Assembly (NCBI GenBank): GCA_902761035.1
Contig: CACWIW010000093.1
Location: 1-34,491, forward strand
DNA: 34,491 bases
Reading direction: 5' to 3'
Source of the DNA: an uncultured bacterium
Lineage (GTDB): Bacteria; Verrucomicrobiota; Kiritimatiellia; RFP12; UBA1067
The translations under genes were made by a program, and so were the position numbers. Of this stretch, positions 181 to 30,500 are shown piece after piece (the stretch's first letter is position 1; every line of letters starts with the position of its first letter). The notes below the pieces were generated by a model that made no database searches, was not told where the DNA came from, and was given only the letters and a program-made list of their open reading frames with translations.

Positions 181-251
181 AACGCGCACGGGCGCCGCCT
201 TTTCGTTTGTTGCGGGGAGTCGGTCATATAAGCGCAAAAAGGATACAGATA

Positions 252-2063
252 ATGGCAATGAAGCTAAAGCTTAACGAACAAACGCCAAGGTCGTCCTCGA
301 CAGGCGTCCGTAGATTTGTCGTAACGGCTGTCGCCGTTGCTGCCTCAATGGTTTGGGCAATGCCGACAAAAGAAGAGATCAGGCAAGTGCAGCCGCTTGT
401 GAATGAATTGATGTCCGAACATGTGAAGTCCTATAAGTCCGGCAAGAAGTCCGCCAAGGAGGTCGGCGACGCGGCGGAGGGCTTGGCGAATCAGGCAGAA
501 CAGGAGGCTGCGAAACTCGTACTCATCAAGGGAGCGGTCTATTATTACTCGATTGCCAAGGAATTTGACAAGGCTGCCGACATTCTGGAGACGATTGGTA
601 CACACATAAGCGACATCTCGCCATCAGATGTGGAGGAGCTTGCGTCAATGGCCCTTGCTAATGCTGGCAGAGGCGAGGCGCAACGCCTGAGGGGGATCCT
701 GCGCACTGCATCAGAACAAGTCGCCGCTGTAAAAGACATTGCAGCCTGCAAGGTCAAGCTTAGGGAAAAGCATCGAGACCCCGCCGTTCTGCGCGAACTC
801 GCCGACGCATACGTGCGCTATGGCGACTGGACAAGGGCGCTCAAGGTGTTTGCCGTTCTTGAAGTGAAGGCGGCGATCTACGAACGCAACCCTGACGACG
901 CAAAGGACTTCAATACCCTGAAGGCGGCTGACTACTGGTGGAACTTCAAGGCGAAGGACACATACCCGTACCGCATCCACGCGGCGGCGCTCTATCGCAA
1001 GGCAATAGACGACGGCCTTGCGACTGGGCTGAAAAAGGCTCTTGCCGAAAAACGTATCGCAGAGGCGGAGCCCCTGACGCAGCAATCGCAGGATTCAGGA
1101 AAAACAGAAAGTGCGCAGCAAGCTGCCATGGCGATGAAGGACAGGGGCAAAATGTTTTGCGTGATAGACCTTTCCGCCGGGCCGGACGCCCGCAAATATC
1201 CCATATCTTACCTCTCTGCCGAGCCTAGCGGTGGCTGGGCTAATGAATACAAGACGAGAAAACTCGTCTTGCGCCGCATAGAACCGGGGGCATTCATCAT
1301 GGGATGGAACCAGGGTGACGGATCGCACCGCGTCACCTTCAAAAAGCCGTTTTACTTAGGCGTATTCGAGGTGACGCAGAAGCAATATGCGTTGGTGACA
1401 GGCGAGAAACCGTCCAGATTTTCCGGTGAAATGCGTCCGCTGGATACGATCTCCTGGGAGAAACTCCGCGGCCCGGCCGACGTGTATAACTGGCCAGAAG
1501 TGAAGACCGTTGCGCCCAACACCTTTATCGGGCGAATCCGTGCCAAAACGGGGATTGCCGGTTTTGACCTTCCCACTCAGGCACAGTGGGAGTATGCCTG
1601 CAGGGCCGGAACTACAACTGATCGTTACGATGGTTCAAAATTCAATAGAGATAGATTTTGGAACGATTCTATTAGCCACAGATACAAGCTTGGAAGATGT
1701 GCCGTGAATCAGAAGCTAAAAGGCTATAAAGAACCTAACTTTGTGGAAAAAGAAAAAAAACGCAAGCCTGACGGCAAAGGCGGATTCTTTGAGGCCACTA
1801 CAATCGTGGGAATGTATCCGCCAAATCCCTGGGGGCTTTATGACATGTATGGGAATGTCATGGAAATGTGCCTGTCGCAAAAGTACGATTTCTGGGGAAA
1901 GGACGGGGAGCATCCCTCCGGAAAAGTCGTCAAGAGCGGAAGGGCATTATGTGGCGAGCCTTGGGACGAACCTATAATAGGTTCATCAAGATGTTACTTC
2001 GTATCTCCCAGTCGCAACTGTCACTCTGACGTTGGCTTCCGCCTCTCCCTTTGGTTGGATTGA
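252..2063 (+). CDS. Secreted FGE/SUMF1-family protein
   Basis: A 603-residue protein. The ATG at 252 is chosen because AAAAAGGA (236-243) lies 8 nt upstream. After a long n-region there is a hydrophobic stretch ending VWA, consistent with signal peptidase cleavage, so export is likely. Residues about 60-280 are helical and TPR-like. From about residue 345 to the end is an FGE-sulfatase (formylglycine-generating enzyme/EgtB/PvdO) fold, marked by GAFIMG, FEVTQKQYA, FDLPTQAQWEYACRAG, NPWGLYDMYGNVMEM and the terminal GFRLS. Family members include true formylglycine-generating enzymes and many secreted lectin-like or structural proteins. I do not see a convincing copper-binding Cys pair in the usual position near the C terminus, so sulfatase activation is not supported. 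It is monocistronic, with its own promoter at 33-61. Confidence 0.85.
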   Translation: MAMKLKLNEQTPRSSSTGVRRFVVTAVAVAASMVWAMPTKEEIRQVQPLVNELMSEHVKSYKSGKKSAKEVGDAAEGLANQAEQEAAKLVLIKGAVYYYSIAKEFDKAADILETIGTHISDISPSDVEELASMALANAGRGEAQRLRGILRTASEQVAAVKDIAACKVKLREKHRDPAVLRELADAYVRYGDWTRALKVFAVLEVKAAIYERNPDDAKDFNTLKAADYWWNFKAKDTYPYRIHAAALYRKAIDDGLATGLKKALAEKRIAEAEPLTQQSQDSGKTESAQQAAMAMKDRGKMFCVIDLSAGPDARKYPISYLSAEPSGGWANEYKTRKLVLRRIEPGAFIMGWNQGDGSHRVTFKKPFYLGVFEVTQKQYALVTGEKPSRFSGEMRPLDTISWEKLRGPADVYNWPEVKTVAPNTFIGRIRAKTGIAGFDLPTQAQWEYACRAGTTTDRYDGSKFNRDRFWNDSISHRYKLGRCAVNQKLKGYKEPNFVEKEKKRKPDGKGGFFEATTIVGMYPPNPWGLYDMYGNVMEMCLSQKYDFWGKDGEHPSGKVVKSGRALCGEPWDEPIIGSSRCYFVSPSRNCHSDVGFRLSLWLD

Positions 2064-18736: not shown

Positions 18737-19135
18737 CTATGCCAAGCCAATCTCCCGCTCCTGCTCGCTCCACAGATCGCTCTTGATGTTGAAAAGCCTT
18801 TCGGTGGAAAAATCATCCGGCAGCGTCTTTGCTATGACCGCTCGGAGAATTTTGGGTGAAAGGTTGGCGAGGCGTAGAACCCGAACCACGTAGGGGCGGT
18901 CCATTTTCAGACTCTCCGCAAGTTCCTTTATATCGCCAAACGCCCCGGTTTCAAGAAGCCGCGTCCATTCTCGGGCGCGAGCGAATAGCCGAATGAGCGT
19001 CCCCGATTCGTCAAGGTTGATGTCATTCACCTCTCCTTGACCTGCTACAACAAGCCGCCGACGGCCGCAGACCGTCTGGAATCGGATTGGAATCGATACA
19101 AGGGCATTCCCGTCCTCAGTTTCCATTATGTTCAT
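18737..19135 (-). CDS. ParB-HTH-like accessory protein of the recombinase cassette
   Basis: A 132-residue protein whose start (GAGGAATTCAAAC upstream) overlaps the recombinase stop by 20 bp. Residues about 67-105 (GDIKELAESLKMDRPYVVRV then LRLANLSPKILRAVI) have the helix-turn-helix pattern of ParB/KorB-type proteins. The N-terminal 50 residues are beta-rich. No nuclease or CTPase motif is seen. Because it is the last gene of the cassette, it probably helps the recombinase choose or handle DNA sites; that role is inference. Confidence 0.75.
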   Translation of the reverse strand: MNIMETEDGNALVSIPIRFQTVCGRRRLVVAGQGEVNDINLDESGTLIRLFARAREWTRLLETGAFGDIKELAESLKMDRPYVVRVLRLANLSPKILRAVIAKTLPDDFSTERLFNIKSDLWSEQEREIGLA

Positions 19136-20408
19136 GTTTGAATTCCTCCATGAGGCGTTTGTCGCCTTTGACTTTGAACTTGATATCGACGGATGATTCG
19201 TAGACCGTCACGGATTCGATGATCCCTGCCAGCAGATCGCGCTTGGCGACTGGGGTGAGGGATGTCCAGAACGCTTCTGGAGATTCGAGCTGCCGCCGCA
19301 TCTCGAACGGCGAAATGCATCTTTCGCCTGCGAGCGTGCGGAGCATCGTCGGTGTCCTCAGAAACTTGATTGCTTCCGTCTCCACGAGCGGTTCAATCAG
19401 TTGAGCGGGAACGGACTTAACCGTGCAGGTCGATACGCCCCTCCTCATGTCCTTGCGGCATGTATAATAGCCGTAGCGTGTTCCGTTGCGGCTCTTACTC
19501 GTCCAGGTGTATGAGAGCGCATCGCCGCATTGTCCGCAACGGACGAGGCCCGTCAGTAGTGCCGGGGAGGAAACGCGCCGCTCCGCCTTTGGCTTGACCT
19601 CGACGGTCTTGAGCCGTGCAGCAACCTTGTCCCATAGTTCCTTGCTGACGATAGGCTCGTGAACGCCCTTGAAGGACTCGCTCTTCAGCGGTACGCGCCC
19701 AACATACACGCAGTTGCGGAGCGCGGTCGCAACCATGACGGTGTCGAAGGGTTTGTTTTTCTCCGGAAAGCGCATGATGCCGTTCTCTGCAAGGCGCTTT
19801 GCGACGAGTTTGGGCGTTCCAAGTTCAAGGTACCACTCGAATATCTTGACAACGTTAGGCGCTGTTTCAGGGTCGACCACGAGACGTTTGTCGATGCGTT
19901 TGTAGCCGTAGGGAACAGTCCCGCCCGGCCAGAGCCCCTTGCGCCTTGTCGCGGCCATCTTGTCCGAGGTACGCTCGGAGGCAAGTTCCCGCTCGAACTG
20001 CGCAAAGGTCATAAGCAGGTTCATGCACATCCGCCCCATCGAGGTAGAGGTGTTCAGTTCCTGCGTGACGCATGAGAACGAAACATGGTGTTTCTCCAGT
20101 TCGTTGAACACCTGGGTGAAGTCGAGGAGCGAACGCGAAAGACGGTCGATCTTGTAGCAGACAATCATGTCGATTTTGTCCGCTCTGACATCATCCATCA
20201 TCCTCTGAAACGCGGGGCGCTTCAGATTGCCACCGGAGTACCCGCCGTCATCGTAATGCGTCTCAAGGCATACCCAGCCTTCAAGGCGCTTTGCTGCAAT
20301 GTACGATTCGCAGGCCATCCGCTGGGCGTCGAGGGTGTTGAACTCCTGTTCAAGTCCTTCTTCCACGCTCTTTCGCGTGTAGATCGCGCATCGTGTTATT
20401 TGTTGCAT
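19116..20408 (-). CDS. Large serine recombinase (integrase)
   Basis: A 430-residue protein. The N-terminal resolvase domain begins AIYTRKSVEEG with the nucleophilic Ser at about residue 14, followed by an Arg/Asp-rich active site (YKIDRLSRS) and FAQFERELASERTSDKM. Next come a Recombinase domain (WPGGTVPYGYKR to about residue 260) and a zinc ribbon (LVRCGQCGDALSYT .. YYTCRK). It is shorter than typical large serine integrases and has only a short tail after the zinc ribbon, as in DUF2924-associated recombinases. It presumably integrates and excises the element. Start overlaps the DUF2924 stop by 13 bp. Confidence 0.95.
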   Translation of the reverse strand: MQQITRCAIYTRKSVEEGLEQEFNTLDAQRMACESYIAAKRLEGWVCLETHYDDGGYSGGNLKRPAFQRMMDDVRADKIDMIVCYKIDRLSRSLLDFTQVFNELEKHHVSFSCVTQELNTSTSMGRMCMNLLMTFAQFERELASERTSDKMAATRRKGLWPGGTVPYGYKRIDKRLVVDPETAPNVVKIFEWYLELGTPKLVAKRLAENGIMRFPEKNKPFDTVMVATALRNCVYVGRVPLKSESFKGVHEPIVSKELWDKVAARLKTVEVKPKAERRVSSPALLTGLVRCGQCGDALSYTWTSKSRNGTRYGYYTCRKDMRRGVSTCTVKSVPAQLIEPLVETEAIKFLRTPTMLRTLAGERCISPFEMRRQLESPEAFWTSLTPVAKRDLLAGIIESVTVYESSVDIKFKVKGDKRLMEEFKHEHNGN

Positions 20409-20921: not shown

Positions 20922-21929
20922 TTACCTCCCTCTCTTACGGTCGCGTTCGCGCCGCATCTTGCGCAGTTTACGGCGGAAGACGTACATTTTGTCGATGAAT
21001 GTGTCGTCGCTAGAAGGCTCGAAGTCAAACTCTGCGGCCAGTTTCTGAATCGGACTCAGATACCGGCGGAGGTATATGTCGTGCGAGACGGCGAGCCGCT
21101 GGCGGATCAAGGCGTGAGGCCACTCCTCAAGAAGCATGTCCAGCACGATACGGAGATGCGAAGGCAGATGGCTGCGCAGAATCTCGACGTCGATCCTGAA
21201 CTCCATGTCGCGGACGGTGTCTTGGCGGTCATCCGCAAGGCATTCAGCACTTACCTCATCAGAAGATGTTTCGCCGTCAGGCTTGGAGGAGATCGATAGA
21301 TGCGTCACTCCGCCCCCGCGTTTCTCGGCGTTAACGAAGTCGATGAAGTCCGAGAGCGTGTTTCTCGCGATGCGAGCGAAGTACGTTTCACGTGACGCCG
21401 ACTTCGGCTTGGCGCAGTTCTCTGGGCGAAACTTCGGTGGGTGTTCGGAATCGTACTTGAAGTAAGCAGTGCGGACACCGTCATAGATGGCTTCAAGCGC
21501 GTCCTGCTTCAGGTCATCGCGTAAAGCCTTTTCACGGATCTTGATGTCGATGAAGCGGAGATATAGACCACGTTGGGTCTCGAAGAAGTCGTCAAACTCC
21601 TTCTGCACGGCATCGGTCATGGGCGGGAACGGAGTGTACGATGATCCGTCAGGCTTTTTGGCGTACCAGACATTTCTAGTCTGGCGGTAGCGAGACGGGT
21701 AACGCTTACCAGAGGTGTGACGATTGATGAATGCATGGTAAGTGCGATTCCAGTTGGTGAGGTCGTAGATTCCTTTCTTGGGATCGTCCTTTAGGACGCG
21801 CCAGGGAGAGAAGTATGTGCCATTCCCAGTACGTATCTCAGTACGGATACGAACGAGACGTTCTTCTTTCTCCGCAGCGGCTTTTGCGACACGCCGACGA
21901 GTAGGTTTGCCGAGGGGTTCCGAAGTCAT
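20922..21929 (-). CDS. Sigma-factor-like protein of the recombinase cassette
   Basis: A 335-residue protein. Start 21929 overlaps the upstream stop as TAATG, so it is translationally coupled. Residues about 110-205 resemble sigma region 2 (LYLRFIDIKIREKALRDDLK; FKYDSE; ARIARNTLSDFIDFVN), and residues about 255-300 (LPSHLRIVLDMLLEEWPHAL then IRQRLAVSH) resemble region 4 with a degenerate helix-turn-helix. The first 80 and last 35 residues are highly basic. It could be an element-specific sigma factor for the cassette or a DNA-binding protein built on that fold. Its position in a recombinase/DUF2924 cassette favours a regulatory role. Confidence 0.65.
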   Translation of the reverse strand: MTSEPLGKPTRRRVAKAAAEKEERLVRIRTEIRTGNGTYFSPWRVLKDDPKKGIYDLTNWNRTYHAFINRHTSGKRYPSRYRQTRNVWYAKKPDGSSYTPFPPMTDAVQKEFDDFFETQRGLYLRFIDIKIREKALRDDLKQDALEAIYDGVRTAYFKYDSEHPPKFRPENCAKPKSASRETYFARIARNTLSDFIDFVNAEKRGGGVTHLSISSKPDGETSSDEVSAECLADDRQDTVRDMEFRIDVEILRSHLPSHLRIVLDMLLEEWPHALIRQRLAVSHDIYLRRYLSPIQKLAAEFDFEPSSDDTFIDKMYVFRRKLRKMRRERDRKRGR

Positions 21930-22183
21930 TAGCGCACCCTCGCTTTCCTTGTCGCAGGAACCCACTTACGGGATTCCTCGAAACGTTCAGAGAGGAGTTT
22001 GACTCCGGAGCCGTACCGCAGATACGTGCGGTAGCGAATTAGGATCGGAACGAAATGTCCGCGAGGCTTCTTCGCTTTGGGCTTGGCGACGCTTGCGCCG
22101 CCAGCCTTGTTCTTTTTCTGTTTCCCCGCCAGCAGCGAGATCGCTGCCGACGGCCGATGGTTTGCTTTTGTTTGTTTTTTCAT
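21929..22183 (-). CDS. Small basic protein, first gene of the recombinase cassette
   Basis: An 84-residue, strongly Lys/Arg-rich protein (KKQTKANHR..; KPKAKKPRG) with a central RYRTYLRYGSGVKLLSERF helix. Probably DNA- or RNA-binding; family unknown. The ribosome site is weak. The stop overlaps the next start by 1 bp as TAATG. Confidence 0.55.
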   Translation of the reverse strand: MKKQTKANHRPSAAISLLAGKQKKNKAGGASVAKPKAKKPRGHFVPILIRYRTYLRYGSGVKLLSERFEESRKWVPATRKARVR

Positions 22184-22344: not shown

Positions 22345-22376
22345 AAAATCGCCCGGCGGTAATTCCGTCGGGCGAT
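22345..22376 (-). terminator. Terminator of the 25.7-22.4 kb minus operon
   Basis: A 12-bp stem ATCGCCCGGCGG/CCGTCGGGCGAT with a 5-nt loop (22348-22376). On the minus strand it is followed by TTTT (22345-22347 plus stem T). It is 59 bp downstream of the last gene. Confidence 0.8.
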
Positions 22377-22434
22377 CTACAAGGTCGTGAAAAAATCTTC
22401 GCTTACCCTCTTGACAATAAAAAATTCCGTTTTT

Positions 22435-24345
22435 CTATTTCTTGTTCCGTTTTCCTGGTGTACGTTTCTGCTTCTTGGAGGCCTTTTTCCGTTTCCTGTT
22501 CCGTTTTCCGTTTGACTGTTTCTTCTTCAGAATCCTCTCGCCTGTGCGCTTTCGGTAACACTCAATCAGCCTAATGTATGTCTTGACACTTTTTACGCCA
22601 ATCCGATCAAGCTCTTTTTTTCTATTCTTGAAGGAGTCGATCTTCGATACCTTGAGTCCGTTAACAAGCATTGGATCCTTCCGATCGGCAATCCAAAACT
22701 CAAAACACTTCTTCTGGTCATCAAAGCTAAACGGCCCGCCGGGATCACCATGTTTCTTGAACTTTCCAATCATCTTCAAACCATGATTGACCTTGGCTGT
22801 CGTGTCGTTTAGTATCTCCTGATTCTCCCTCTCCTGCGCCAATATCTCGGCGGAATCACGCTGTGCGGCATCGAATTCTGAGTCCATTTTCCTATCGTGG
22901 TCAGCAAGCTGCGCTTTCAAGTCTTCGGTGGCTTTGTCGCATGGTGCCAGGATGGCCTTACCGCTTTTGTAGAGGCGCACTTCCATCGCAAGTCTACTGG
23001 CAGTCTCTCTTATGGTGTCGAGAATCATCTTGAGATGATCCTTTCTGTCAGATGATAAAAACATTCTGCCGTACGATTCGTACAATTCCAATGCCCTAGC
23101 AAGCTTTGAATACACGGTTGACCGAACGCAAAACGCCAACGCCGTCAACATTTCGATGTGTTCCGAGAACATTCTCCACACATCTATGCAGATGTCGTGT
23201 TCCGGTATGTTCTCGTAAACGTCAAAGTACGGCCATTCTTTATCGTCGTGATAGCCGGCTTCAAGTGTCTTTTCCGCATCAACGAAGGAGTCGACGCAGA
23301 AATTGCGATAAGATATGCACGACTTCATGCGTAGGACATCATAAAGTAGCTCAAACCATGGGCGGGGCAGTTCTTCTGACTCAAATAGAAAACGCTCCGC
23401 CCAGTCTACACAACTATAGCCATAGACCGCGTGAGGGGTTGCATTTTTTACGTCTCGAAGACACTTGGCAAGACCATCACGTACAAGTTCAAAGCCATTT
23501 TTGTATCTTCCAATTCTGGTCAAATGAAGGTAATACGCCTCCTGTCGGTACTTCAAATAAGCCTTTAGCCGACTACGTTCTGTCGCCGCGGTGTCGCTCC
23601 CATCTTCATAAAGCTCTTTGTCATGTTCATCATCAACGTTGAAGAACCGTTCTTCGGCGGGCTTCTTCATCTCTGTCGCAAACATCTTGTCAATTTCTGT
23701 CGGTATCCTGTGCTGTTCCCTGTAGATGGTACAATGCGTCAGCAGTGTCTGGAACTTGCCGGACAGGAACGAATACGACGTCTCGCCGCTCTCCTCCTTG
23801 CTGGCAGGCATGAACAAGATCGGATGCACCGCCGACACCGTATTGTGTCCCTTCTTGCGGAGCCTGTCGTAAAGCCAAATGAAGAGATGATCAAGTTCCC
23901 CTGCAAAGGAACGCGGCGTGAAACCGGTCTGAAAATCCACATTGTCATCATAGTTGTTACGCCCTGTTCCCCATTTGCTGAAAAGCGGCACGATTGGGGC
24001 AAACGCCTTTGCCATCCTTTTGCTGTCGGCGGCTGACACGACTGTATTCTGTGCATCCCCTACGTAGAGATTGGCTAAAGCCTCAAGGACTTCCACAATC
24101 CAGATGCGACTGGGCAAATCATTATCTTTGATCTTGACGGCAATCCTCATGCCCGCAACAAGATACTTACATACGACCGAGAACAATTCCACGGGCGATT
24201 TCTTGAAGATATAAAACGGATCATGTCTAGTTACAGCCATGTAATCCTTATCTACCACAGGCCTGCGCACAAGTATGCGATTGCTTATTGTGTTAAGTTT
24301 CCTGTCGCGTTCGGTATCATACGTTTGTTCGTCGTCGTAACTCAT
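22435..24345 (-). CDS. 636-aa protein of unknown function; shares C-terminal domain with the next gene
   Basis: I do not recognise the family. There is no signal or membrane segment. Residues about 1-470 are predominantly helical with many aromatic residues; about 470-535 form a charged coiled coil (LKAQLADHDRKMDSEFDAAQ; ILAQERENQEIL). Residues about 545-610 (FDDQKKCFEFWIADRKDP ... IDSFKNRKKELDRIGV ... CYRKRTGE) align with the C terminus of the 307-aa protein. The final 30 residues are almost all Lys/Arg/Asn/Gln, a nucleic-acid-binding tail. The start overlaps the stop of the 307-aa gene by 4 bp (ATGA), so the two are coupled and probably work together. Confidence 0.7.
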   Translation of the reverse strand: MSYDDEQTYDTERDRKLNTISNRILVRRPVVDKDYMAVTRHDPFYIFKKSPVELFSVVCKYLVAGMRIAVKIKDNDLPSRIWIVEVLEALANLYVGDAQNTVVSAADSKRMAKAFAPIVPLFSKWGTGRNNYDDNVDFQTGFTPRSFAGELDHLFIWLYDRLRKKGHNTVSAVHPILFMPASKEESGETSYSFLSGKFQTLLTHCTIYREQHRIPTEIDKMFATEMKKPAEERFFNVDDEHDKELYEDGSDTAATERSRLKAYLKYRQEAYYLHLTRIGRYKNGFELVRDGLAKCLRDVKNATPHAVYGYSCVDWAERFLFESEELPRPWFELLYDVLRMKSCISYRNFCVDSFVDAEKTLEAGYHDDKEWPYFDVYENIPEHDICIDVWRMFSEHIEMLTALAFCVRSTVYSKLARALELYESYGRMFLSSDRKDHLKMILDTIRETASRLAMEVRLYKSGKAILAPCDKATEDLKAQLADHDRKMDSEFDAAQRDSAEILAQERENQEILNDTTAKVNHGLKMIGKFKKHGDPGGPFSFDDQKKCFEFWIADRKDPMLVNGLKVSKIDSFKNRKKELDRIGVKSVKTYIRLIECYRKRTGERILKKKQSNGKRNRKRKKASKKQKRTPGKRNKK

Positions 24346-25265
24346 GGCTTCTTACACCTCTTTCGATATTGTTCAAGAATCTGCGTGAACTCCTCTGCGC
24401 TTTCGACGTGGTATTTCGCCAGTTCGCGCCTGCAATGGGTAAACACGTCAGAACGCTGGATGCGTCCATCGTGTTCCATCTGTTCCTTGATGTACGGATT
24501 GTGCTTGTTGCTCTCCCAGAGTTTGTGACACGCCTTCTGCTCCTCGATGCCCCACTTCTTCTTCGCCTTTCCGCCTTTCCTGATACGCCCGATCTCATGG
24601 CGGAGTTCTGCCGCTTCGTGGTGCATGGCATCTTCCGTCTGATCGAAACGTTCCGAAACGGCATCCACACTATGCTGGTGGATAGCATCGATTTTAGCGA
24701 GGGATGCATCGGACAATTCCACCTTTTTCGGCGCATCACCGATCTGCCCACGTTCGCGCCTGCGTTCCAGTTTCCGAAACCCGTTTGAGAGCGACTTGAA
24801 TCCATCACAGATGTCGGATCGCGTCTTCTCTACCTTGCACTTGAAAGTCTCTCTCGGCATCTTCGACGGGGTGTTGCAGGCAAGCGTAAAAAGGGAGGTC
24901 ATCGCGTTGCGAAGGTCGTTGCATGAATCGTCATCATCGGGGAGGAGGTCTTCCGCACTTTCCGCGAGAATCGTGCCGAGGTCAAGAATGCCACGCACAC
25001 GCTCCGTGCCGATTGAGCCTGGGGCGCACTCATTCACACGGTCACATAGTTCCTCGAACGCCCTGCACTCATTGTTGCAGACGAGCGCGAAGAGCTGCGA
25101 CATGAGGCGGTCGGGTCTCTCGTCGGCTTCGCCAATGAGCCAAGCACGGCTCCTTGCGAGTCCGGCGATGAAAGAGTGGAGACATTTGCGCACTGCGAGT
25201 ACAGCTTCGTCAAGAGGAAGCCAGCGGGCATCCTCATCGGCGAATCTGTAACTGTCGCTGCGCAT
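24342..25265 (-). CDS. 307-aa protein of unknown function; coupled partner of the 636-aa protein
   Basis: The N-terminal 150 residues are helical with several Cys and an acidic DLLPDDDDS segment. Residues about 150-230 form a coiled coil (FKSLSNGFRKLERRRER; VDAVSERFDQTEDAMHHEAA). Residues about 240-305 (WGIEEQKACHKLWESNKHNP ... FTHCRRELAKYH ... EQYRKRCKK) form a domain shared with the 636-aa protein, probably a DNA-binding or dimerisation helix bundle. The pattern variable N terminus, coiled coil, shared C-terminal domain suggests two subunits of one complex. It lies 9 bp downstream of the 157-aa gene. Confidence 0.7.
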   Translation of the reverse strand: MRSDSYRFADEDARWLPLDEAVLAVRKCLHSFIAGLARSRAWLIGEADERPDRLMSQLFALVCNNECRAFEELCDRVNECAPGSIGTERVRGILDLGTILAESAEDLLPDDDDSCNDLRNAMTSLFTLACNTPSKMPRETFKCKVEKTRSDICDGFKSLSNGFRKLERRRERGQIGDAPKKVELSDASLAKIDAIHQHSVDAVSERFDQTEDAMHHEAAELRHEIGRIRKGGKAKKKWGIEEQKACHKLWESNKHNPYIKEQMEHDGRIQRSDVFTHCRRELAKYHVESAEEFTQILEQYRKRCKKP

Positions 25266-25274
25266 GGGAGAATA

Positions 25275-25748
25275 TCAGAACGGAAGGTTATCTGCCACAG
25301 ACACAGCTTCTTTGTCGACCAGACCTGGGAGGGTTTCCTGGACAACGGATGCCTTGGGGGTCTGGCGCATGGTGAGGCGATAGACCGGTTTACCCTCCCA
25401 TTGCTCGTCGGCATCAGTGACCTCGAAGGTGATGGAGTATTCCTTGAAGTTGATGCCTTCCTGAATCAAAAAGTTTTTCAAACTGATGTAGCGGTACGGG
25501 CCGCTCGCCTTGACCGCAAAGCCGCGAGCGTCTTCTTCCGGACAGGTGACCGCACCGTACTCGATCTCATCACTGGCGTCGGGGCGGTTACACAGTGAGA
25601 AGAGAATGATGCTTTTCACACCTTGCAAGTCCATCATCTCCATCGCGTCCGTCGCAAAGCGCAGTCGCCCAGAACGCATGACGGAGGCATGAGCGATTAC
25701 CTCAAACCTCTTTGCGTCCACCATACTGGCATGGTCTAACAGTCCCAT
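25275..25748 (-). CDS. 157-aa protein with SSB-like C-terminal tip
   Basis: First gene of the minus operon, with a good ribosome site (CAGGAGAAAACAAA). A beta-rich protein: RLRFATDAMEMMDLQGVKSI and a following YGAVTCPEEDARGFAV region resemble small DNA-binding beta folds, but I cannot name the family. The C terminus ends ADNLPF, like the D-x-L/I-P-F tip by which single-strand binding proteins recruit repair and replication enzymes. It may be a single-strand-binding or SSB-mimic protein of the element; inference. Confidence 0.65.
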   Translation of the reverse strand: MGLLDHASMVDAKRFEVIAHASVMRSGRLRFATDAMEMMDLQGVKSIILFSLCNRPDASDEIEYGAVTCPEEDARGFAVKASGPYRYISLKNFLIQEGINFKEYSITFEVTDADEQWEGKPVYRLTMRQTPKASVVQETLPGLVDKEAVSVADNLPF

Positions 25749-25784: not shown

Positions 25785-25814
25785 ATTATATCATACTCTG
25801 TATTAGGGTTGCAA
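25785..25814 (-). promoter_or_regulatory. Promoter of the minus operon
   Basis: On the minus strand TTGCAA (25814-25809), 18-bp spacer, perfect TATAAT (25790-25785), preceded by TATGA. It lies 37 bp upstream of the 157-aa gene. Confidence 0.8.
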
Positions 25815-26034: not shown

Positions 26035-26184
26035 TAATCAAAAACAGCATTTAAGAACCGAAACCGCTTTGGTTCATCCTTCGCTTGCATTAATTTCCAA
26101 AAAAATACCCGAAACTGACTGCTGCAAAAACCGTAAATGTGCCGTTGGGGGCAAATGAGGCCTCCGAGAAAGGAAAACAAAACT

Positions 26185-27006
26185 ATGCACAGATACCCAT
26201 TCATCGTCGACATTCCGGCCGACGAATACCATGAGGCCGCACGGCGCGGCGAGTTCCTGTCGAGCCATCTGCTCGGCGACTTCCGGGCGTGTCCGCGCCT
26301 CTACAAGAAGAAGTTGTCCGGCGAGATCGAGCCGACGGACACGGCGGCGTACCAGACCGGGCGCGCCCTGCACACGCTCATCCTCGAAGGACGGGCGAAG
26401 TTCGATGCGGATTACCTCATCAGCTCGGGGCCGACGAACCCCAAGACGGGCGAGCCGTTCGGCAAGACCACCAAGGCGTACCGCGAGTGGCTGGCGGCGC
26501 AGAAGCGTCCCATCGTCTCGAGCGAGGACTTCGGCTGGATGCTGAAGCTCCAGCAAAGCGTCGTCCTGCACCCCGTCGCCAACGCGCTCCTTGAACATGG
26601 ACGCGCGGAAGGCACAGTGCGCATCGCCCTGGACGGCGAACCCTGCCAGATAAGAATGGATTGGTTCAACCACGATTTCGAGGGCAGGCCGGTCATCGTC
26701 GACCTCAAGACCTGCGACAACCTCTCCTTCTTCGAGCGGGACGCCCGCAAGTACGGATACCCGGAGCAGCTCGCGTTCTACCGCGAGGTGTTCAAGGCGG
26801 CTTCCGGCGGCGTCGCGCCCGACACGTACATCATCGGAATCGAGAAACGCGAGCCCTACCGCTGCGGCGTGTGGAAGCTCACCGACGGGCTGCTCGACCA
26901 GTCAGCGGCCACCAACCAGACGGCGATGTCGCTCCTGAAGGAGTGCCGCCGCCGGAACGAGTGGCCGACCGGGTACGAGGAGCTTCGCATCTTCGACACG
27001 ATCTGA
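26185..27006 (+). CDS. PD-(D/E)XK exonuclease (PDDEXK_12/RecE-like)
   Basis: A 273-residue protein starting at ATG 26185 after AAAGGAAAAC. Residues about 25-60 (HLLGDFRACPRLYKKKLSG, YQTGRALHTLILEG) and the catalytic IRMDWFN..IVDLKTCDN (Asp near 157, Asp-Leu-Lys near 170) are the PDDEXK_12 (DUF3799) signature. YPEQLAFYREVF is the usual downstream helix. This family supplies the 5'-3' exonuclease of phage single-strand annealing recombination systems. First gene of the plus-strand module; its partners are the Sak4-like ATPase and DUF669 protein that follow. Confidence 0.9.
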   Translation: MHRYPFIVDIPADEYHEAARRGEFLSSHLLGDFRACPRLYKKKLSGEIEPTDTAAYQTGRALHTLILEGRAKFDADYLISSGPTNPKTGEPFGKTTKAYREWLAAQKRPIVSSEDFGWMLKLQQSVVLHPVANALLEHGRAEGTVRIALDGEPCQIRMDWFNHDFEGRPVIVDLKTCDNLSFFERDARKYGYPEQLAFYREVFKAASGGVAPDTYIIGIEKREPYRCGVWKLTDGLLDQSAATNQTAMSLLKECRRRNEWPTGYEELRIFDTI

Positions 27007-27916: not shown

Positions 27917-28369
27917 ATGGCAACCATATCTTTCAACGCGGCTGAAGTCCAGCCTTCCTCGTTCGACGCCCTCCCTGCGGGGACCTACGAGGCCGTCATC
28001 GCCAACTCCGAGGCAAAGCCCATGAAGTCCGGCAACGGCATGGGCTTCAACTTCGAGTTCGAGATCATCTCCGGCGACTGCAGGGGACGCAAGGTGTTCT
28101 CGTGGGTCACGTTCGAGCATCGCACCAGCCCCGACGCGCAGCGTATCGGGCGCGAACAGCTCTCGGCGATCTGCCGCGCCGTCGGCGTGGAGCAGCTCAG
28201 TGACACGGTGCAGCTCCACAACCTCCCGATGATTATCACGGTCGCGCTCGACAAGAACGACCCGACCCGCAACGTCATCAAGTCGTACAAGCCGAAGAAG
28301 AACGCTGCCGCCCCGCAGCAGGCCGGCGGCTCCGCCGCAGGAGGGGCCGCGCCGTGGGCGAGGCCGTGA
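27917..28369 (+). CDS. DUF669 protein
   Basis: A 150-residue protein starting after CAGGAAAGGAAAAC, 21 bp after the ATPase. FNAAEVQPSSFDALPAGTYE, VIANSEAKPMKSGNGMGFNF and VTFEHRTSPDAQRIGREQ are the DUF669 core. This family usually lies beside Sak4-like ATPases in phages and is thought to be a single-strand DNA-binding partner. The C terminus is Ala/Gly/Gln-rich. It overlaps the next gene by 16 bp. Confidence 0.9.
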   Translation: MATISFNAAEVQPSSFDALPAGTYEAVIANSEAKPMKSGNGMGFNFEFEIISGDCRGRKVFSWVTFEHRTSPDAQRIGREQLSAICRAVGVEQLSDTVQLHNLPMIITVALDKNDPTRNVIKSYKPKKNAAAPQQAGGSAAGGAAPWARP

Positions 28370-28749
28370 AGTTCGAGCTGCCCTGGCCTCCGAGCGTGAA
28401 CCGCTATTACAGGCATGTCGGCCCCCGTGTGCTTATCAGCCGCGAGGGCCGGCGTTTCCGCAGGATGTGCGTCTCCCGCCTCGCCGGGGCGTTCCCGAAA
28501 CTCGCCGGCGGCGTGAAGCTGACCGGCGAGTTCTACCCGCCCGACGCGCGCAAACGCGATCTCGACAACGTCCTCAAATGCACCCTCGACTCGCTCGTAC
28601 ACGCGGGCCTCATGGAGGACGACTCGCAGATCAAGCGCATCGACATCAGGATGGAAGCGCCCGTGCCGCCGGAGGGGCTCGTGTACATCGAACTCGAGGA
28701 AATCAACGAAACCGAAAACAAGAACGGAAAGCGCACATGCTCGAACTGA
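28354..28749 (+). CDS. RusA-family Holliday-junction resolvase
   Basis: A 131-residue protein starting at GTG 28354, inside the DUF669 gene, with AGGAGG (28339-28344) in front. LPWPPSVNRYYRHVGPRV and the catalytic RKRDLDNVLKCTLDSLVHAG plus EDDSQI are diagnostic of RusA: the Asp residues bind Mg and cut four-way junctions. It resolves recombination intermediates of the element. It overlaps the helicase start by 13 bp. Confidence 0.95.
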   Translation: MGEAVKFELPWPPSVNRYYRHVGPRVLISREGRRFRRMCVSRLAGAFPKLAGGVKLTGEFYPPDARKRDLDNVLKCTLDSLVHAGLMEDDSQIKRIDIRMEAPVPPEGLVYIELEEINETENKNGKRTCSN

Positions 28750-30500
28750 GAGACTACCAGTCTGACGCGAAGGCCGCGCTGTACGACTACCTCCGCCGGA
28801 AGGACGGCAACCCGTGCGTCGTCATCCCGACGGCCGGAGGCAAGTCGATCTGCATAGCGTCGGTCGCCGCCGACGCGGTCAACGCGTGGCACGGGCGGGT
28901 GCTGGTCCTTGCCCACGTCAAGGAACTTGTGGACCAGAACAGCAAGGAGCTCAAGGGGCTTTGTCCCGACCTGCCCGTCGGCGTGTATTCCGCCGGACTT
29001 GGCAGGCGCGACACGAAGGAGCCGGTCATCGTGGCTGGCATCCAGTCAATCTACAACAAGATCGACCTCTTCGAGCCTTTCGACCTCGTCATGGTCGACG
29101 AAGTCCACATGGTGCCGCCGGACGGCGAGGGGCGCTACCAGACGTTCCTCAACGCCGCTAAGGCGAGGAACCCGAACGTTCGCATGGTCGGCTGGACGGC
29201 CACGCCCTTCAGGACGCAGGGCGGGCTCATCTGCCGCCCCGAAAACCTCTTCAACGAGGTTTGCTACGAGGCGAACGTCAAGGACCTGATCGATGCGGGA
29301 TGGCTGTCGAAGATCACGGCGAAGGCGGGCGTCGCCAACGCCGACCTCGACCACCTGCACATCCGCGCCGGCGAGTTCGTGGCGGAGGACGTGGAGAAGG
29401 CGATGGGCGAAGACCGCCTCGTCGCCACGGCCTGCCGCGAGATCGTTGAGAAGACCCGTGACCGCAAGGCCTGCCTCATCTTCTGCACGTCGGTGGAGCA
29501 TTGCAGCAAGGTGGCGAGGCTCGTCACCGAGTACTCCGGCGAGGAGTGCGCCGTCGTGACGGGCGACACGCCCGACCTGGAGCGCGACGAGATCATCCGC
29601 CGCCTCAAGGGCGAGGAGATCCCCGCCGACCTCTTCGGCGGCACACTGCCGCCCCTGAAGTACTGCTGCAACGTGTCGGTGATGACGACGGGGACTAACA
29701 TCCGCCGCCTCGACACCATCGCGCTCCTGCGCCCGACCGCGAGCGCGGGTCTGTACGTCCAGATGGTCGGTCGAGGCTTCCGCCTCTCGCCCGAGACGGG
29801 CAAGACGGAATGCCTCGTCCTCGACTACGGGAAGAACGTGGAGCGCTTCGGGCCGATCGACGCCGTGAACGTCCGCGAGCCCGCGAGGGCGAACAGCGAG
29901 ACGGGGCCGCTCGTGAAGATATGTCCCCAGTGCAGGACGCTCGTCCCGCTATCCGTCATGCTGTGCAAGGAGTGCGGCTACCAGTTCCCACGACAGGAGG
30001 CGGAGCGGAGGACGCACGAGGCGCACGCGGACAACGCGGCGATACTGTCCGGCGAGACCACGCTTGAGACGCACGACGTCACGGACGTGCTCTTCCAGGT
30101 GTGGACGAAGCGCGACGCCCCGGAGGGCGCACCGCAGACGGTCCGCGTCACCTACAGATGCAACGCTCTCGCGGGGTCGCTGTACGACGCCTACAGCTGC
30201 AGCTTCTCGGAATGGGTATGCCCCGAGCACACGGGCTTCGCCCGCTCGAAGTTCGAGAAGTGGTGGGCCGCGAGGGCGTCGGCCGAGTGCCCCGTCCCCG
30301 ACAGGGCCGAGGACGTGTGCGAGGCGGACTTCATGGGAATGCTGCGGACGGTGAGGCGCATCACGGTGAAGCGCGTCGCCGGGAAGCGTTACCCGGAGGT
30401 CGTCGGCTACGAGTTCGGCGACTTCCCGGAGAACAGCCTGGCCAGCGGCCAGAACGACAACTCGGAGGAGTACGAGGACTTCGACGACCTCCCATTTTAG
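28737..30500 (+). CDS. SF2 DEAD/DEAH-type helicase with zinc motif and SSB-like C-terminal tip
   Basis: A 587-residue protein starting at ATG 28737 (MLELRDYQSDAK, the Q-motif-like entry of this family) with CGGAAAG upstream. Motif I is PTAGGKS (about 32), motif II DEVH (about 121), motif III TATPF; motif V/VI region MTTGTNI and QMVGRGFRLS. Cys pairs CPQC and CKEC (about 400-420) form a zinc ribbon after the helicase core. The last residues EEYEDFDDLPF copy the acidic tip of single-strand binding proteins, which is unusual for a helicase and suggests it docks on host SSB partners. Unwinds DNA or remodels replication/recombination intermediates; exact role inferred. Confidence 0.9.
   Translation: MLELRDYQSDAKAALYDYLRRKDGNPCVVIPTAGGKSICIASVAADAVNAWHGRVLVLAHVKELVDQNSKELKGLCPDLPVGVYSAGLGRRDTKEPVIVAGIQSIYNKIDLFEPFDLVMVDEVHMVPPDGEGRYQTFLNAAKARNPNVRMVGWTATPFRTQGGLICRPENLFNEVCYEANVKDLIDAGWLSKITAKAGVANADLDHLHIRAGEFVAEDVEKAMGEDRLVATACREIVEKTRDRKACLIFCTSVEHCSKVARLVTEYSGEECAVVTGDTPDLERDEIIRRLKGEEIPADLFGGTLPPLKYCCNVSVMTTGTNIRRLDTIALLRPTASAGLYVQMVGRGFRLSPETGKTECLVLDYGKNVERFGPIDAVNVREPARANSETGPLVKICPQCRTLVPLSVMLCKECGYQFPRQEAERRTHEAHADNAAILSGETTLETHDVTDVLFQVWTKRDAPEGAPQTVRVTYRCNALAGSLYDAYSCSFSEWVCPEHTGFARSKFEKWWAARASAECPVPDRAEDVCEADFMGMLRTVRRITVKRVAGKRYPEVVGYEFGDFPENSLASGQNDNSEEYEDFDDLPF

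What the first reader, a model, noticed from the sequence alone, without database searches (positions are those of the whole stretch)
22435..25748. Unrecognised three-gene minus operon: coupled proteins sharing a C-terminal domain plus an SSB-tipped partner
Two adjacent genes overlap by 4 bp (ATGA), have unrelated N-terminal halves, central coiled coils and a homologous ~65-residue C-terminal domain (EEQKACHKLWE / DDQKKCFEFWI ... RKxEL ... YRKR). A third protein ending ADNLPF precedes them. One promoter and one strong terminator bound the operon. It lies between the recombinase cassette and the replication module, the usual place for accessory or defence genes. No known system matches, so this is the best candidate here for something undescribed.
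Basis: partly seen in the sequence, partly recalled or inferred. Interest (0 to 1): 0.75.

Follow-up and report, generated by a model that had tools for sequence, protein, structure and literature searches.

The report
Gene pair in prophage defence slot
Two overlapping, undescribed genes sit in a small swap-in, swap-out slot of a virus integrated in a rumen bacterium; close relatives of the virus carry known antiviral systems in that slot, so the pair is a good but unproven candidate for a new bacterial antiviral system.

Summary
Three minus-strand ORFs (W3 157 aa, W2 307 aa, W1 636 aa) lie behind one good promoter and ahead of one strong terminator. W2 and W1 overlap by 4 bp and share a coiled coil plus a ~70-residue basic C-terminal domain (CTD). 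The "SSB tip" of W3 does not hold up: its 80%-identical relative lacks it.

Two new facts explain the setting. First, the genes occupy a 4.2-kb variable slot between conserved genes of a Kiritimatiellae prophage family. In six syntenic relatives the slot holds other cargo: ABC-3C/Lamassu-type systems in three, a DUF4143-ATPase locus in two, W3 plus another unknown pair in one. This fits a prophage defence hotspot. Second, the CTD is an uncatalogued domain, found only in the host's own bacterial family (12 of 115 genomes; none of 231 others in the class). It is attached to several unrelated heads, and some relatives sit beside restriction-modification or Hma genes.

Most likely W2-W1 is swappable prophage cargo, probably anti-phage, with W3 a separate phage gene. 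The cargo-slot reading is strong; the defence function and the CTD's DNA-binding role are inferred. The W1-W2 pairing was seen nowhere else.

The parts
25785..25814 (-). predicted sigma-70-type promoter of the operon (TTGCAA, 18-nt spacer, TATAAT, TG before the second hexamer)
   Evidence: consensus scan, 10 of 12; read directly
25275..25748 (-). W3, 157 aa: conserved gene of this prophage group, next to the EXO gene; ends ADNLPF only in this copy
   Evidence: homologues in 9 of 115 family genomes; alignment A4
24342..25265 (-). W2, 307 aa: helical head (residues 5-171), coiled coil (186-229), CTD (236-306)
   Evidence: ORF; AlphaFold2 model pLDDT 73; profile match
24579..24710 (-). predicted coiled coil of W2
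   Evidence: long helix 186-229 in model, low confidence
24348..24560 (-). CTD of W2 (residues 236-306), basic, five helices
   Evidence: profile match; model pLDDT 86.5; pI 9.4
22435..24345 (-). W1, 636 aa: head without relatives, coiled coil, CTD, very basic tail; 4-bp overlap with W2
   Evidence: ORF; no relative of the head
22531..22734 (-). CTD of W1 (residues 538-605)
   Evidence: profile match; BLASTP to W2
22347..22378 (-). strong intrinsic terminator hairpin
   Evidence: fold -24.4 kcal/mol, z -5.3
20922..21965 (-). left border of the slot: sigma-factor-like phage gene
   Evidence: PHROG 1740, E=1.5e-6; 71% identical in L050
20396..21028 (-). DUF2924 gene next to the recombinase (left conserved cassette)
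   Evidence: Pfam
19116..20408 (-). large serine recombinase (left conserved cassette)
   Evidence: Pfam
26137..27006 (+). right border of the slot: phage exonuclease gene (EXO), first gene of the recombination/replication module
   Evidence: PHROG 412, Pfam DUF3799

Best explanation
W2-W1 is swappable accessory cargo in a defence-type hotspot of a Kiritimatiellae prophage, and it most likely works as a two-protein anti-phage (superinfection-exclusion or abortive-infection) module expressed in the lysogen. Shown: location, slot turnover, neighbours in relatives, shared coiled coil plus CTD, promoter-like and terminator sequences. Inferred: both proteins are made together by translational coupling and join through the homologous coiled-coil/CTD parts; the basic CTD is a small helical nucleic-acid-binding or assembly module; the two different helical heads do the specific work, one sensing the incoming phage and one interfering with it. 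W3 is a separate phage gene that shares the promoter.
For: Slot between the recombinase-DUF2924-sigma cassette and EXO-Sak4-SSB-helicase-primase holds different cargo in relatives: ABC-3C/Lamassu-type LmuA-LmuB in L078, L081 and L084 (with MC3 in L078), AAA_14-DUF4143 ATPase in L082 (PADLOC candidate PDC-S01) and its homologue in L244, W3 plus a different pair in L050. Two IMG/VR contigs confirm one arrangement. Slot size 4.2 kb and turnover fit the published description of prophage defence hotspots (PMC9122126). GC of W1 (0.48) and W2 (0.55) is lower than the replication genes (0.64-0.66). CTD relatives elsewhere: in L012 directly upstream of SNase, type II REase and MTase on the same strand; in L014 divergent from HmaA/HmaB; in L072 fused to SNase and followed by HsdM-HsdS-HsdR. 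CTD pI 8-10.7 in all 13 members.
Against: No recognisable catalytic or sensor domain in W1 or W2. The pair occurs once. Of about 13 chromosomal CTD loci with readable surroundings, only 3 or 4 adjoin clear defence genes; tested narrowly against methylase density the enrichment is weak and chosen after the fact (P about 0.02-0.04). The CTD has no confident structural relative (best Foldseek E=2.7; VIA Z 4.7). Slot cargo in other prophages need not all be defence; DUF4143 ATPases are common and PDC-S01 is only a candidate.
Confidence: 0.5

Rival explanations
1. W2-W1 (with W3) regulate or support the prophage itself, for example as DNA-binding regulators of lysogeny or helpers of the adjoining recombination/replication genes. 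The basic CTD would bind phage DNA.
For: Placed divergently from EXO-Sak4-SSB-helicase, where phage regulators are often found; basic CTD; weak structural hints to helix-turn-helix proteins (sigma regions, PerR, TnsB, HNF-1; VIA Z 4.7 or less); W3 is conserved in other phages at this place.
Against: Close relatives of the phage do without both genes and carry ABC-3C or other cargo instead. CTD homologues are mostly chromosomal, outside this prophage type.
Confidence: 0.22
2. W2-W1 is lysogenic-conversion cargo for something other than phage defence, such as host fitness or anti-plasmid or anti-satellite action.
For: A variable prophage slot can carry any cargo; the heads have no known domain.
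Against: The cargo recognised in this slot is of the ABC-3C/Lamassu or DUF4143-ATPase kind.
Confidence: 0.18
3. The CTD family is a selfish or decaying gene family that hitch-hikes on mobile elements with no selected function here.
For: Several partial or fragmentary CTD copies in related genomes (L065, L066, L068, L069); multiple copies in G054 and G055.
Against: W1 and W2 are full-length, without stops, with codon-position GC bias, a good promoter and a terminator, and precise 4-bp coupling.
Confidence: 0.08

Closest known systems
[quoted passage not shown] 2022, PMC9122126)
   Same: Small locus (4.2 kb here) with turnover of cargo between two conserved phage genes; some cargo belongs to known anti-phage families
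   Different: Different phage type and host (Kiritimatiellae); border genes are a sigma-like gene and an exonuclease; no activity tested
ABC-three-component / Lamassu systems (LmuA-LmuB, DUF3732, MC3)
   Same: Occupy the same slot in three related prophages
   Different: W1/W2 have no DUF3732, ABC ATPase, CTD7 or MC domain
Chromosomal head-coil-CTD proteins of the same bacterial family, e.g. L012:5623-6678 (beside type II R-M), L014:12185-13213 (beside Hma)
   Same: CTD and coiled coil; the W2 head is marginally similar to that of L012/L061 (HMM E=6e-4 in a 9-sequence set)
   Different: Single genes, not a coupled pair; some are followed by or fused to a SNase nuclease

Membership tests
Prophage antiviral hotspot | Small locus between two conserved genes of one phage family | tested here: met
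   4.2 kb between sigma-like gene and EXO; same borders in L050, L244, L245/L082, L246/L081, with variants in L238/L078 (left end off the contig) and L242/L084 (other orientation)
Prophage antiviral hotspot | High turnover of cargo | tested here: met
   seven slots, at least five different contents
Prophage antiviral hotspot | Some cargo belongs to known anti-phage families | tested here: met
   LmuB E=4e-98, 6e-93, 6e-99; LmuA E=1.5e-9 to 1e-13; DUF3732, CTD7, MC3 in Pfam
Prophage antiviral hotspot | Cargo shown to block phages | not testable with these tools
   needs plaque assays
ABC-3C / Lamassu | ABC-type ATPase with DUF3732 or LmuB | tested here: not met
   W1 has no PADLOC match at E 0.01; W1, W2, W3 have no Pfam match of note; W2 was not scanned in PADLOC
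SSB or SSB-tip protein (W3) | Acidic C-terminal tip ending in P-F, conserved in the family | tested here: not met
   none of seven aligned homologues has it, including one 80% identical
SSB or SSB-tip protein (W3) | OB fold | tested here: inconclusive
   no Pfam, PHROG or PDB sequence match; structure not predicted
Helix-turn-helix DNA-binding domain (CTD) | HTH fold and DNA contacts | tested here: inconclusive
   five-helix basic domain; only weak matches, mostly to HTH proteins, VIA Z 4.7 or less, Foldseek E 2.7 or more

The most novel reading that the evidence does not exclude
An undescribed two-protein anti-phage system carried by a prophage, built on a new portable basic domain that is plugged onto different helical heads and is also used by chromosomal proteins that sit with restriction-modification, SNase and Hma genes.
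Probability: 0.3. Interest if true: 0.75.

Novelty: new variant of a known kind. Interest (0 to 1): 0.52.

Why it matters
It defines a prophage cargo slot in a little-studied rumen bacterial lineage whose other tenants include ABC-3C/Lamassu-type systems, so unknown tenants (W2-W1, and the separate 462+448-aa pair) become directly testable defence candidates. It also exposes an uncatalogued domain family, restricted in the genomes searched to one bacterial family, that recurs next to restriction-modification and Hma genes.

Tried and rejected
Whole-genome search with the CTD profile: 12 of 115 family genomes, none in 231 further class genomes, and in a phylum-wide sample of 388 only family members. 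W2 full model against the PDB: only generic four-helix bundles (FAT, vinculin tail; Z 8 or less), not taken as homology. CTD alone against PDB and viral structures: nothing significant. SSB-tip idea rejected. W1 head against L013's head, the other long one: no match. The statistical test of the defence association was limited to methylase domains and is weak. One PADLOC call failed on wrong coordinates.

Full report
WHAT IS THERE. The window is one whole contig (G000:C93) of a 6.1-Mb draft genome. Named contigs with 85-93% identical helicase genes are metagenome assemblies, labelled Kiritimatiellae or Lentisphaerae or 'uncultured bacterium', one of them from roe deer omasum. The right part carries a phage recombination/replication module on the plus strand: exonuclease (EXO), Sak4-like annealing protein, SSB, helicase, primase-polymerase; the left part includes an endolysin-like gene and ends in a minus-strand cassette of sigma-like gene, DUF2924 and large serine recombinase. 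So it is most likely a prophage. A good promoter and a strong terminator border them, and W2/W1 overlap by ATGA.

THE SHARED PART IS REAL. W2 and W1 align with E=6e-10 over about 130 residues covering coiled coil and C-terminal domain. The first profile (8 sequences) was built from these two and six loci found with W2 alone, so independent support comes from the loci found later: it picked up further copies in G054, G055, G093, G109 and others. In all, 12 of 115 genomes of the host's bacterial family hold it; none of 231 other genomes of the class do, and in 388 genomes sampled across the phylum only family members do. No Pfam or PHROG family or PDB sequence matches. Predicted alone it is a compact five-helix domain (pLDDT 86.5), basic in all 13 members (pI 8-10.7).

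HEADS DIFFER. With CTD removed, the heads fall into separate groups: L011/L015/L016; L012/L061 with W2 as a marginal member (HMM E=6e-4, set of nine); L013, L014 and W1 each alone. G054 copies have little more than coiled coil and CTD. The family is thus a conserved CTD plus coil on changing helical heads. The W2 head is predicted as a helical bundle (residues 5-171) with only generic matches in the PDB.

W3 IS A DIFFERENT STORY. W3 homologues occur in nine family genomes, next to EXO in the same divergent position, followed in most by a family of ~350-aa proteins unrelated to W1/W2. The closest (G030, 80%) is followed by a 462+448-aa pair instead. The ADNLPF end is not conserved. By contrast the phage helicase ends in an invariant DLPF in all five aligned relatives, so an SSB-like tip is present in this phage family, on another protein.

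THE SLOT. I fetched further prophages with the same borders and read the region between the sigma/DUF2924/recombinase cassette and EXO. Seven distinct slots are readable. Three carry ABC-3C/Lamassu-type genes (L078: LmuA-like with CTD7, MC3, LmuB with DUF3732; L081; L084). Two carry an AAA_14-DUF4143 ATPase (in L082 scored as PADLOC candidate PDC-S01; in L244 its homologue by BLAST) with different partners. One carries W3 plus the 462+448 pair (L050). One is this window. L244's ATPase sits with relatives of the 462+448 pair, and two IMG/VR contigs show the same arrangement. L078's left border runs off its contig and L084's genes are in the other orientation. This agrees with the published description of prophage antiviral hotspots: loci of about 1-5 kb with high turnover between two conserved phage genes (PMC9122126). 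W1 and W2 also have lower GC than the replication genes.

CTD RELATIVES NEAR DEFENCE GENES. In L012 the CTD gene is followed on the same strand by a SNase, a type II REase, a type II MTase and a PDC-S11 gene; in L072 it is fused to a SNase and followed by HsdM, HsdS and HsdR; in L067 it is followed by a SNase and an 832-aa protein with a sub-threshold N6-methylase match; L014 is divergent from HmaA/HmaB; L070 has an HNH nuclease of restriction type nearby. L011, L013, L015, L016, L061, L063 and L064 show none recognised, though not all their neighbours were scanned. Against the density of two methylase families in these genomes, two hits in 13-20 loci has P about 0.02-0.04; I regard this as suggestive only, since it was chosen after seeing the data and the copies are not independent.

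HOW IT MAY WORK. Shown: cargo slot, coupling, homologous coil plus CTD. Inferred: W1 and W2 form a complex through these parts; the CTD binds nucleic acid or assembles the complex; the heads provide sensing and effect; the outcome is protection of the lysogen. No catalytic residues were identified, so the effector step is open.

NOVELTY. The kind of locus (prophage defence hotspot) is known. The CTD family and the W2-W1 pair match nothing in the libraries searched, so I rate it a new variant of a known kind. That the W1-W2 pairing is seen once is the main weakness.

Noticed in passing
window 28467-30500 (+): The phage helicase ends in an SSB-like tip; D-L-P-F is invariant in the five aligned relatives, while the window's own SSB (27917-28369) ends APWARP without a tip.
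   Followed up: partly
L050:6913-9595 (-); L244 6591-9627; L253, L254: A second undescribed conserved gene pair (461/462 aa + 448/563 aa) occurs in the same slot in two prophages and two IMG/VR contigs, once with W3 and otherwise with a DUF4143 ATPase upstream; only sub-threshold Pfam matches and no PADLOC match.
   Followed up: partly
L012:5162-6678, L067:7947-9117, L072:6922-8634: CTD genes followed by or fused to a SNase, with a hydrophobic signal-like stretch between, and next to R-M or methylase-like genes; in L012 and L067 the SNase is in another frame than the stretch.
   Followed up: partly
L065, L066, L068, L069: Truncated CTD fragments in several related genomes suggest rapid decay of this gene family.
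   Followed up: no
window 21929-22183 (-): An 84-aa ORF upstream of the sigma-like gene resembles the start of its homologue in L050 (VRTY..GSG); possibly its true N-terminus in another frame, or a separate small gene.
   Followed up: no
window 207-2063 (+): FGE-sulfatase (C-type-lectin-like) domain at the end of a 618-aa protein at the left edge of the contig; not checked for diversity-generating elements.
   Followed up: no
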